Below, one piece after another: positions 4,258 through 7,911 of a DNA stretch of 52,448 nt. The stretch's first letter is position 1. Every line of letters starts with the position of its first letter. This DNA comes from an uncultured Halieaceae bacterium (GTDB lineage: Bacteria > Pseudomonadota > Gammaproteobacteria > Pseudomonadales > Halieaceae). Made by a program: the position numbers and the translations under genes. The notes below the pieces were generated by a model, which did no database searches, was not told the origin of the DNA, and saw only the letters and a list, made by a program, of their open reading frames with translations. Where the stretch lies: the NCBI GenBank assembly GCA_913048575.1, contig CAJWWJ010000002.1, positions 1 to 52,448 of the forward strand, given 5' to 3'.

Positions 4258-4869
4258 ATGCCACAGCCACCCCACGCCGATGTCCGTGGATTTTTGCCGG
4301 ACAATGAGGGCCTACAACTTTACGAGTGGGCGCTGGCCGCAACCGCTACTGGCCCTCTTTTGGAAATTGGAAGCTACTGCGGTCGCTCAACGATCTGGTT
4401 AGGTCAAGCCGCACAAGCGCGACAAACCGCCGTATTCGCAATAGACCATCATCGCGGCTCTGAGGAGCATCAAATAGGAGAGAGCCACCACGATGCTGAG
4501 TTAGTAAACGCCGAAGGATTATTCGATACCTTTGCGGCGTTTCGTCGCAATATTGTTCAGGCTGATCTCGAGCAAGTCGTCATTCCCATCGTTACCGGAA
4601 GTGCACAGTTCGCAGCTCATTGGGCGGGCCCATTAAGCGTCGTATTTATCGATGGTGGTCATAGCCTCGACGCGGCGCTCGCTGATTATCGCCACTGGGC
4701 CCCGCGTATCGAACCCGGCGGAATCCTCGCCATTCACGACGTTTTTCCAGACCCCGCTGACGGTGGTCAGGCGCCTTATACTATTTGGCGGTTGGCACAA
4801 CAATCAGGGCTCTTTACCCCCGAGGGAACAGTGGGAAGCCTGCGCGCCCTGCGCCGACTGGCGGGCTGA
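4258..4869 (+). CDS. class I SAM-dependent methyltransferase (Methyltransf_24-like)
   Basis: LLEIGSYCGRSTIWLG SAM-binding loop, AIDHHRGSEEH, VVFIDGGHSLDAALADYRHW, GGILAIHDVF. Confidence 0.8.
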   Translation: MPQPPHADVRGFLPDNEGLQLYEWALAATATGPLLEIGSYCGRSTIWLGQAAQARQTAVFAIDHHRGSEEHQIGESHHDAELVNAEGLFDTFAAFRRNIVQADLEQVVIPIVTGSAQFAAHWAGPLSVVFIDGGHSLDAALADYRHWAPRIEPGGILAIHDVFPDPADGGQAPYTIWRLAQQSGLFTPEGTVGSLRALRRLAG

Positions 4870-4877
4870 CGCACTCA

Positions 4878-5969
4878 CTAGACCCCCGCCTCCAGCGGAG
4901 GCGCCTCTAAAGAGTCATTCAGAGTCGAGCCCATAAATAGGCGGCACGCTGCGGTGTGCTCAGTCAGTGCGTCCGCTGCCAATAGCACGGCCCCCGCGGT
5001 CCACGTGGGCTTTTCTAATGGCCATAGCGTCCGTTCAGCAAACTGATACCCAGTCCACCATGCGCCATCATTATCTCGCCACTGCGCCAACCAGCTGAAT
5101 AATTCGGCTGCCTGCTCTCGCTGCCCCGCCGCCAATAACGCCAAGGTCAACTCGCAGGATTCTGCGACCGTGGCCCAGGGCTGGTGATTTTCACAGCGAC
5201 AGCCGATCCCGGGCTCAACAAATTCTGACCAACGACTGCTCAACCGCTGTTGCGCCGCTTCGCCTTCTACCACTCCGGTTAAGATCGGGTAAAACCAGTC
5301 CATTGCATAGCGAGACTTGCTCTCCCAAGTGCGATCAAAGCGCGCCGGCTTATGTCGTAATGCCTCACCGAGTCGTGACCTCGCGTTTTCCCAATGATCT
5401 CGCTTTTGGCCTAGCTGATCGGCGATCAATATGCCGCACTCCAGCGATTTGTAGATAGAACTGCAGCCGGTCACCAATGCGTCACCGAGTGGCGCACCCA
5501 CGCTGTCAACCGCCCAATCAATCTCGCCCTCTGGGCCCTGATAACGCAATACAAACTCTAGTGCGCGCACAACCACAGGAAACAACCGCTCGAGGAATAG
5601 GGCATCTTGTGCAATCAAAAAGTGATGCCATACCCCTGTCGCAATATAGGCTATGTAATTGGTCTCGCGTCGCTCCACTGATCGATCGGGTTGCCCCTCG
5701 CGATAACAGGCCCACCAGCTTCCATCGACAAGCTGCGTGTCTGACAGCCAGAGATAGGCGCGCTCTGCCGCATCGATTTCACCGGCAATACTCAGCGCCA
5801 TCGCTGCCTCGGTGTGATCCCAGGGGTCAGTGTGCCCTCCCTCGAACCATGGTATTTCGCCAGATGGCCTTTGAGTCTTCAGGATAAAGTCGACCGTTGG
5901 CCGCAACCAGCTGTCAGGATACGAGCCGCCGCTCAGTCGCATGGTCTGCACAGATCGAGCCGTCATCAT
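4878..5969 (-). CDS. alpha/alpha-toroid protein (prenyltransferase/squalene-cyclase-like fold), function unknown
   Basis: Four QW-like motifs (TQRPSGEIPW, TQLVDGSWW, YQGPEGEIDW, QWRDNDGAWW), Trp-rich; no signal peptide; 4-bp overlap with the upstream methyltransferase. Confidence 0.7.
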   Translation of the reverse strand: MMTARSVQTMRLSGGSYPDSWLRPTVDFILKTQRPSGEIPWFEGGHTDPWDHTEAAMALSIAGEIDAAERAYLWLSDTQLVDGSWWACYREGQPDRSVERRETNYIAYIATGVWHHFLIAQDALFLERLFPVVVRALEFVLRYQGPEGEIDWAVDSVGAPLGDALVTGCSSIYKSLECGILIADQLGQKRDHWENARSRLGEALRHKPARFDRTWESKSRYAMDWFYPILTGVVEGEAAQQRLSSRWSEFVEPGIGCRCENHQPWATVAESCELTLALLAAGQREQAAELFSWLAQWRDNDGAWWTGYQFAERTLWPLEKPTWTAGAVLLAADALTEHTAACRLFMGSTLNDSLEAPPLEAGV

Positions 5970-6673
5970 GCGGGCTTAGTAAAATACAAAATAATGCTTT
6001 TACCCATAAACGGATTGAGTAACACATCGATCGCACGGGTCAGCCATGGCTTTTTCATCAAGTCCCACACGAGGAGGCGGTGATAAGCTTTAACCAGCCA
6101 AGGCTCTCGGTCGAGGCGCCAAAAAAGGCACTTTAACCACCAGTAAGGCACGTGCAAGGCATGAGCGCTGCCCCGGCCAACACAGATAAAACCCAAACGC
6201 TCCACTTCACGACGGAGATGCGTGGCATCAAAAATACGAATATGCCCACCAGGGGTCGTTCGATACCCCTCACTCAAACGCCAGCAAATCCACTCTGGCC
6301 ATTGGCGCGGCACACTGATCCCCAGTTTGCCACCGGGTTTTAAAACCCGCATGGCCTCCTCCAGCACCAGAAGGTAGTTTGGGATGTGCTCTAATATCTC
6401 ACTGGCAATCACGACATCGGCGGTATTATCAGCGATGGGCAGAACGGTGGCATCACCCACTCCAAATCCAATCTCACCCTGAGGCGAATGACACTGCATA
6501 TCGCTCATTCTTTCAGTAGCAGTCGCTAGCGCCGTTTCAGAAAGATCGATACCCACTGCGTGAACATCGGGCAAACAATAAGCTGCCAAGGAATGTCGAC
6601 CCTCTCCACAACCGATATCCAAGCACAGATCACCTGGTTTCAACGCCAATTCGTCTAAATCCAGCGTCAACAT
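5966..6673 (-). CDS. class I SAM-dependent methyltransferase (Methyltransf_11-like)
   Basis: LCLDIGCGEGRHSLAA motif I, IASEILEHIPNYLLVLEEAMRVLKPGGKLGISVP. Confidence 0.87.
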   Translation of the reverse strand: MLTLDLDELALKPGDLCLDIGCGEGRHSLAAYCLPDVHAVGIDLSETALATATERMSDMQCHSPQGEIGFGVGDATVLPIADNTADVVIASEILEHIPNYLLVLEEAMRVLKPGGKLGISVPRQWPEWICWRLSEGYRTTPGGHIRIFDATHLRREVERLGFICVGRGSAHALHVPYWWLKCLFWRLDREPWLVKAYHRLLVWDLMKKPWLTRAIDVLLNPFMGKSIILYFTKPA

Positions 6674-7911
6674 GAATCAATGCATCGCCGATACTGCTCG
6701 ACCATCAGTCGTGCGCAGACCGACCAAGAGAAAGTGCGATGCGCGCGGTGTTGCCCTCGATTGATCAGCTCGGCAGCGACATCGGCCTCGGACAACACCA
6801 CATCAACCGCCTCAGCAAGCGCTTTAGCATCGCCGGCAGGCACCAATAACCCGCCATCACCCACCACTTCTGCTAACGCACCACCATCACTCGATACCAG
6901 TGGAATACCCGACGCCATCGCTTCGACAGCCGGCAAGCCAAACCCCTCATAAAGTGATGGGACCACTGCGACCGTGCTCTCTGCGTACAAGCGAACAATA
7001 TCAGCGTGGGAAGCGCCGCCTACAAAGTGAATGCGGTCACCGAGTTGTAGTTGACTGATCAGCGCCTCGGTGTCACCCCCGGGCTTCGGTGAGGCAATTA
7101 ACACCAACTGCAATGCCGGTCGGTCAGCGCTGAGTAATTTAAACGCCTGCAACAATACAGCCAAGCCCTTTAAGGGCGCGTCAGCAGACGCTGTCGCGAT
7201 CAACTGAGCGGGTTTTCGGGTGACATCGGGCAACGCTCGGAACAACTCAGTATCCACCCCATTGGGTATGACCTGGATCGCACTGGGCAGCACACCAAAG
7301 TCTGTGGCAATGTCAGCTGCTGAAGCTCTCGAGACGGTCACAATGTGATTCAGTTGCGCAGCCACTCGCGCCTGCATCGTTAAAAAAGAATGCCAGCGGC
7401 GAACCAATAATCGCGCACGCCAGCCTGACGCACCGGCCAACGCCACGTTTAAATCGCGACTAATAGGATGATGAATCGTGGTCACGACGGGCAGGCCCGC
7501 CTGTTGCAGATCAAGAATGCCATCTGCCAGCGTTTGGTTGTCGTGTATGACATCAAAGTGCTGGGCATGGGCCAGTATCCAATCACGTGCGCGTTCACCA
7601 AAGGTCCAAGGCTCAACGAAGCCGCCGCTTAATTTGCTAATCCACTCTCGCCGATTCAAAGGGTCGCGCAGTTCAGTTCGTGTGACGCTGCCCAAATCTC
7701 GGGCGTATAGATCAAGACTCGGTAGCTTAACCAGCCTGACAGTGTCAGCGAGGTCTGGATAGGGCGGCCCCGAAATCACCGTCACCTCATGACCCAATGC
7801 CGTCAACGATTGACTGAGATAACGCAGATAAACGCCCTGCCCGCCCGAAAAAGGGGCTGACCGATAACCCAACAGCGCAATACGGAGGCCGCGCTCAGGG
7901 CGCTGATCCAT
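6667..7911 (-). CDS. glycosyltransferase family 4 (GT-B) protein
   Basis: GGQGVYLRYLSQSLTALGHEVTVISG N-terminus, VIPNGVDTELFR, VPSLYEGFGLPAVEAMASGIPLVSSDGGALAEVVGDGG EX7E region. Confidence 0.92.
   Translation of the reverse strand: MDQRPERGLRIALLGYRSAPFSGGQGVYLRYLSQSLTALGHEVTVISGPPYPDLADTVRLVKLPSLDLYARDLGSVTRTELRDPLNRREWISKLSGGFVEPWTFGERARDWILAHAQHFDVIHDNQTLADGILDLQQAGLPVVTTIHHPISRDLNVALAGASGWRARLLVRRWHSFLTMQARVAAQLNHIVTVSRASAADIATDFGVLPSAIQVIPNGVDTELFRALPDVTRKPAQLIATASADAPLKGLAVLLQAFKLLSADRPALQLVLIASPKPGGDTEALISQLQLGDRIHFVGGASHADIVRLYAESTVAVVPSLYEGFGLPAVEAMASGIPLVSSDGGALAEVVGDGGLLVPAGDAKALAEAVDVVLSEADVAAELINRGQHRAHRTFSWSVCARLMVEQYRRCIDSC

What the first reader, a model, noticed from the sequence alone, without database searches (positions are those of the whole stretch)
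4258..7911. Four-gene cassette (GT4, SAM-MT, alpha/alpha-toroid protein, second SAM-MT) as a candidate undescribed glycan or glycolipid pathway
On the minus strand, the GT4 glycosyltransferase (6667-7911), methyltransferase (5966-6673) and toroid protein (4878-5969) overlap by 7 and 4 bp, so they are probably one translationally coupled operon. A second methyltransferase (4258-4869) converges on them with an 8-bp gap. None has an obvious signal peptide, so the pathway looks cytoplasmic. The next genes on the other side make dTDP-rhamnose. Inference: the genes build a methylated, possibly rhamnose-containing small glycan, with the toroid protein acting on a sugar or polyprenyl substrate. I recall similar GT4/methyltransferase/'prenyltransferase' combinations in other bacterial genomes but know of no assigned function.
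Basis: partly seen in the sequence, partly recalled or inferred. Interest (0 to 1): 0.7.

Follow-up and report, generated by a model that had tools for sequence, protein, structure and literature searches.

The report
Methylmannose polysaccharide genes in marine bacteria
These four genes are the complete set that mycobacteria use to build and recycle a small methylated mannose chain inside the cell, found here in an ocean bacterium (Luminiphilus) and widespread in its relatives, where the chain's proposed mycobacterial partner enzyme (fatty acid synthase I) was not detected in the genomes tested.

Summary
The anatomy is right; the 'undescribed pathway' reading is wrong. The four genes are orthologues, in identical order and orientation, of the mycobacterial 3-O-methylmannose polysaccharide (MMP) cluster: ManT (6667-7911 -), putative 3-O-methyltransferase MeT3 (5966-6673 -), MMP hydrolase MmpH (the 'toroid', 4878-5969 -) and 1-O-methyltransferase MeT1 (4258-4869 +, convergent). 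ManT, MmpH and MeT1 match solved M. hassiacum enzymes at 46-49% identity (E 5e-99, 2e-95, 2e-53). Every catalytic residue proved by mutation in ManT and MmpH is kept. MeT3 is 45-49% identical to the protein in the same slot in mycobacterial loci, down to the same 7-bp overlap with manT. The window is Luminiphilus (Halieaceae): MmpH occurs in 57 and MeT1 in 59 of 61 sampled family genomes. Order and direction of the three-gene operon hold in 99 of 99 loci. The set also occurs across Pseudomonadales, in SAR86 and in Alphaproteobacteria. The adjacent rhamnose genes are not part of it. The paper I could read on these genes surveys only mycobacteria and other actinobacteria. These hosts show no FAS-I, the in vitro target often proposed for MMP. 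Most likely: cytoplasmic MMP or a close variant. Not shown: the polymer itself, and GDP-mannose as donor (one guanine contact is changed).

The parts
6667..7911 (-). manT: alpha-(1->4)-mannosyltransferase (GT4), elongates the mannose chain
   Evidence: PDB 7qsg (M. hassiacum ManT) E 5.3e-99, 45.8% identity over 400 residues; K240, E313, E321 and H142 of M. hassiacum correspond to window K248, E322, E330 and H147, invariant in 68 homologues
5966..6673 (-). meT3: class I SAM methyltransferase, putative MMP 3-O-methyltransferase (pMeT3 orthologue)
   Evidence: 45-49% identical to the protein between manT and mmpH in mycobacterial loci, same 7-bp overlap with manT; subfamily-specific C-terminal block; AlphaFold model pLDDT 91.9, best PDB folds RebM and AtmM
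4878..5969 (-). mmpH: MMP hydrolase, (alpha/alpha)6-barrel alpha-(1->4)-endomannosidase (the 'toroid protein')
   Evidence: PDB 7qsj E 1.8e-95, 46.3% identity; catalytic D47, D50, E262 correspond to window D48, D51, E270; D47 and E262 without substitution in 77 aligned proteins, D50 is D or N
4258..4869 (+). meT1: MMP 1-O-methyltransferase, caps the reducing end; convergent to the operon
   Evidence: PDB 6g7d/6g80/6h40 E 1.8e-53, 48.7% identity over 195 residues; convergent position matches mycobacterial loci

Best explanation
The cassette is a complete MMP (3-O-methylmannose polysaccharide) biosynthesis and recycling cluster in a marine gammaproteobacterium (Luminiphilus, Halieaceae). By the mycobacterial mechanism, ManT adds alpha-(1->4)-mannose from GDP-mannose to short oligomannosides; MeT3 methylates O-3 of the new units; MeT1 methylates O-1 of the reducing end; MmpH cuts mature MMP internally into defined fragments that prime new chains (partially conservative self-replication). 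Shown in mycobacteria by others: the MmpH, ManT and MeT1 activities, and loss of MMP in an mmpH mutant. Shown here: orthology, gene order, kept catalytic residues, co-occurrence and a GDP-mannose-forming enzyme gene. Inferred: the polymer itself, the MeT3 reaction (only putative in mycobacteria too) and the cellular role, most likely binding or buffering of acyl chains, or cold adaptation.
For: Matches to solved M. hassiacum enzymes. Catalytic residues kept. Same order, orientation and 7-bp manT/meT3 overlap in mycobacterial loci, recognised by 74-88% identity to the M. hassiacum ManT and MmpH sequences. 99 of 99 loci ordered alike. MmpH in 57 of 61 and MeT1 in 59 of 61 Halieaceae genomes; the two genomes without MeT1 also lack MmpH, and in the two with MeT1 but no MmpH the MeT1 gene starts 85 and 364 bases from a contig start. 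Mannose-1-phosphate guanylyltransferase/phosphomannose isomerase over its cut-off in 30 of 31 family genomes, G000 included. Biochemistry and mmpH mutant: PMC9883506.
Against: No polymer has been shown in any proteobacterium. The ManT aspartate proposed to contact guanine (D293) is H in the window and T/H/N in most of its Pseudomonadales relatives, so the donor nucleotide is not certain. In Gammaproteobacteria the cluster sits in the LPS-core (waaA/hldE) neighbourhood, which leaves a link to LPS possible. About 46% identity does not guarantee identical chain length or methylation.
Confidence: 0.87

Rival explanations
1. The same enzymes make a variant polymethylated oligosaccharide in Proteobacteria: another nucleotide donor or hexose, another methylation pattern, or extra acetylation. 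The life cycle is the same but the molecule is not MMP.
For: Guanine-contact D293 replaced by T/H/N in most Pseudomonadales ManT; a hexapeptide O-acetyltransferase gene beside the cluster in 10 loci, while S. griseus MMP is acetylated (PMC9883506).
Against: Sugar- and phosphate-binding residues of ManT and the MmpH subsite residues N101, T163, M215, Y219, E262 and E265 are invariant in the aligned homologues; GDP-mannose-forming enzyme present.
Confidence: 0.2
2. The cassette decorates LPS core or O-antigen with methylated mannose, since it lies between core genes (waaA) and dTDP-rhamnose genes.
For: Position next to waaA, hldE, heptosyltransferase and WaaP-type kinase genes in Halieaceae and SAR86.
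Against: The same four genes, in the same order, occur in Actinobacteria without LPS and in proteobacterial loci where waaA and rml genes were not found within the locus; an internal hydrolase of the product and no export gene in the set.
Confidence: 0.05
3. A new rhamnose-containing or polyprenyl-linked glycan pathway.
For: Adjacency of rml genes in the window and Halieaceae loci; weak squalene-hopene cyclase match of MmpH (E 0.0019, below cut-off).
Against: rml genes are absent from the neighbourhood outside Halieaceae-type loci; MmpH is 46% identical to a solved endomannosidase with its catalytic residues kept.
Confidence: 0.01

Closest known systems
Mycobacterial MMP gene cluster (MeT1, MmpH/OrfA, pMeT3, ManT), M. 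hassiacum MHAS_04402-04405 (PMC9883506)
   Same: All four genes, same order, same convergent meT1, same 7-bp manT/meT3 overlap, same ManT and MmpH catalytic residues, 46-49% identity
   Different: Gram-negative marine host; FAS-I not detected in related genomes; guanine-contact Asp of ManT not kept; located in the LPS-core gene neighbourhood
Streptomyces cluster (S. griseus makes acetylated MMP, PMC9883506)
   Same: manT-meT3-mmpH order with meT1 downstream and convergent where found (L096, L097, L100, L101)
   Different: meT1 2-8 kb away or elsewhere in the genome; the window has no acetyltransferase beside the cluster
Mycobacterial 6-O-methylglucose lipopolysaccharide (MGLP) pathway
   Same: Another cytoplasmic polymethylated polysaccharide proposed to bind acyl chains
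   Different: Different enzymes and sugar; not searched for in this genome

Membership tests
MMP biosynthesis gene cluster | ManT, MmpH and MeT1 orthologues all present | tested here: met
   PDB matches 7qsg E 5e-99, 7qsj E 2e-95, 6g7d E 2e-53
MMP biosynthesis gene cluster | pMeT3 orthologue between manT and mmpH | tested here: met
   45-49% identity to the same-slot gene in mycobacterial loci, which are recognised by 74-88% ManT/MmpH identity to M. hassiacum
MMP biosynthesis gene cluster | Order manT-meT3-mmpH with convergent meT1 | tested here: met
   99 of 99 loci; 88 of 89 for meT1; same in mycobacterial loci
MMP biosynthesis gene cluster | MmpH catalytic acid/base D47, D50, E262 | tested here: met
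   Window D48, D51, E270
MMP biosynthesis gene cluster | ManT catalytic K240, E313, E321, H142 | tested here: met
   Window K248, E322, E330, H147
MMP biosynthesis gene cluster | ManT uses GDP-mannose | tested here: inconclusive
   Guanine contact D293 is H302 in the window; GMP_PMI gene present on G000 C39
MMP biosynthesis gene cluster | Cell makes alpha-(1->4)-3-O-methylmannose polymer | not testable with these tools
   Needs extraction and mass spectrometry
Terpene cyclase / prenyltransferase toroid | Significant match to the SQHop or prenyltransferase models | tested here: not met
   Only PF13243 at 17.8 bits, cut-off 26.1
GH15 oligosaccharide amylase | Score above the TIGR01577 cut-off | tested here: not met
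   56 bits against 820.7; a distant fold relation only
dTDP-rhamnose glycan cluster | rml genes conserved with the cassette across lineages | tested here: not met
   rml genes recur only in Halieaceae-type loci

The most novel reading that the evidence does not exclude
Marine Gamma- and Alphaproteobacteria, SAR86 among them, make a self-recycling methylmannose-type polymer (possibly a variant with another donor or acetylation) whose function cannot be regulation of FAS-I, because these cells lack FAS-I; its original role is therefore something more general, such as acyl-chain buffering or cold adaptation.
Probability: 0.5. Interest if true: 0.75.

Novelty: new member of a known kind. Interest (0 to 1): 0.6.

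Why it matters
MMP is described as a mycobacterial (and Streptomyces) cytoplasmic polysaccharide, and its in vitro effect on FAS-I is the usual explanation for it (PMC2674218). Here the whole pathway is nearly fixed in a marine gammaproteobacterial family, common in its order, and kept in SAR86 genomes held here at 1.2-1.3 Mb, none with a detectable FAS-I. That makes the long-open question of what MMP is for testable in Gram-negative marine isolates, and offers many orthologues of a rare alpha-(1->4)-mannosyltransferase and endomannosidase.

Tried and rejected
Prenyltransferase/terpene-cyclase and GH15 glucoamylase readings of the toroid. Rhamnose pathway link. Looking for a fifth conserved gene: ORF clustering over 81 loci found only the four genes shared across lineages; the next families (waaA, tolC, rml, hldE, ilvE, an acetyltransferase) are confined to some lineages. 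The PNAS 2019 MeT1 paper is not held, so whether it mentions Proteobacteria is unknown. The plasmid collection gave one actinobacterial record, Nonomuraea, with the same arrangement.

Full report
Observation. The four ORFs, their overlaps and the 8-bp convergent gap are exactly as reported. Pfam gives GT4 and two SAM methyltransferases and no family for the 363-aa protein.

Identification. A search of solved structures settles it. The 363-aa protein matches MmpH of Mycolicibacterium hassiacum (7qsj, E 1.8e-95; the only other match up to E 1 is at E 0.18). The GT4 matches ManT (7qsg, E 5.3e-99; the next solved GT4 is at 1.5e-25). The 203-aa methyltransferase matches MeT1 (6g7d, E 1.8e-53; next 0.007). 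[quoted passage not shown] The fourth, pMeT3, has no solved structure. The window's 235-aa methyltransferase is 45-49% identical to the gene that lies between manT and mmpH in mycobacterial loci. An AlphaFold model of MeT3 (pLDDT 91.9) has RebM and AtmM, known to me as sugar O-methyltransferases, as its nearest solved folds.

Active sites. From the paper, MmpH D47, D50 and E262 and ManT K240, E313 and E321 are essential or nearly so by mutation, and ManT H142 is implicated by structure. All are present in the window proteins. K240, E313, E321 and H142 are invariant in 68 ManT rows; E262 is invariant in 77 MmpH rows; D47 is not substituted in any row; D50 is D in 62 and N in 14. One departure matters: D293, proposed to contact guanine, is H in the window and its nearest relatives and T or N in most other Pseudomonadales, but D in the M. 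hassiacum, Streptomyces and Nonomuraea rows and several alphaproteobacterial rows. Donor specificity is therefore inferred, not shown. A GDP-mannose-forming enzyme gene is present in the window's genome.

Distribution. The nearest named record is an uncultured Luminiphilus (88% identity), so the window belongs to Luminiphilus/Halieaceae. MmpH is in 57 of 61 genomes sampled from the family, 69 of 195 from the order, 9 of 369 from the class, 5 of 399 from the phylum, and 65 of 397 from the phylum of a Streptomyces genome. MeT1 is in 59 of the same 61 family genomes; the two lacking it (G001, G045) also lack MmpH, and the two with MeT1 but no MmpH carry MeT1 85 and 364 bases from a contig start, so presence and absence agree apart from likely assembly breaks. 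Named hosts include Halieaceae, Spongiibacteraceae, Cellvibrionaceae, Microbulbifer, Endozoicomonas, SAR86, Rhodobiaceae, Parvibaculum and Streptomyces, and one SAR324-labelled bin that could be a binning error.

Architecture. manT-meT3-mmpH are co-directional and in that order in 99 of 99 loci that hold all three. meT1 is convergent downstream in 88 of 89 loci where it was found, and within 700 bp in 78. Of ten loci with the three genes but no meT1 in the fetched stretch, seven were checked by genome and all seven have meT1 elsewhere. No other gene is shared across lineages. The rml genes are a Halieaceae-type neighbour, not part of the unit.

History. In a quick maximum-likelihood tree of MmpH the actinobacterial and proteobacterial sequences separate with 99% SH-aLRT, and the Alphaproteobacteria form one clade inside the gammaproteobacterial set, suggesting transfer from Gamma- to Alphaproteobacteria. 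SAR86 and Halieaceae share the surrounding LPS-core neighbourhood (ilvE, hldE, waaA), which suggests an old position within Gammaproteobacteria.

Mechanism. Best reading: ManT elongates, MeT3 methylates O-3, MeT1 caps O-1 at the reducing end, and MmpH cuts mature chains into primers. This is the self-recycling scheme of PMC9883506, carried over by orthology. The role in cells is unproven even in mycobacteria: in vitro effects on FAS-I are reported, with doubts raised by mutants (PMC2674218), and the mmpH mutant grows more slowly at 15 C (PMC9883506). A FAS-I domain (PF08354) was found in 0 of 31 Halieaceae genomes and 0 of 8 other cluster-bearing genomes, while the positive control Corynebacterium glutamicum rang. 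If the polymer is made here, FAS-I control cannot be its job in these cells.

Novelty. The pathway is known; its presence in Proteobacteria was not found in the papers searchable here, but the key 2019 PNAS paper is not held. Filed as a new member of a known kind.

Noticed in passing
L049, L053, L057, L058, L061, L064, L067, L071, L072, L079 (e.g. L057:9800-10522 +): A hexapeptide-type acyltransferase gene recurs near the MMP cluster in Microbulbifer, Simiduia, Endozoicomonas, Aestuariicella and others, usually beside meT1; S. griseus MMP is acetylated, so it may be an MMP O-acetylase. Absent beside the cluster in the window.
   Followed up: partly
window ManT residue H302 (within 6667-7911): The guanine-contact Asp293 of mycobacterial ManT is replaced by T/H/N in most Pseudomonadales but is D in the actinobacterial rows and several alphaproteobacterial rows.
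   Followed up: partly
L084, L086, L090: SAR86 genomes of 1.2-1.3 Mb keep the whole cluster, inside an LPS-core neighbourhood (ilvE, GT9, WaaP-like, hldE, waaA) resembling that of Halieaceae.
   Followed up: partly
L021:9136-10143 +: In Nonomuraea a DUF1702 gene lies between mmpH and meT1.
   Followed up: no
L063:9977-10537, L083:9751-10344: Two alphaproteobacterial loci carry a protein of about 190 residues with no Pfam match right after meT1.
   Followed up: no
G091, G343 and G106, not fetched: Divergent MmpH relatives (31-41% identity), two of them in genomes of 0.9-1.3 Mb, may mark a further subfamily.
   Followed up: no
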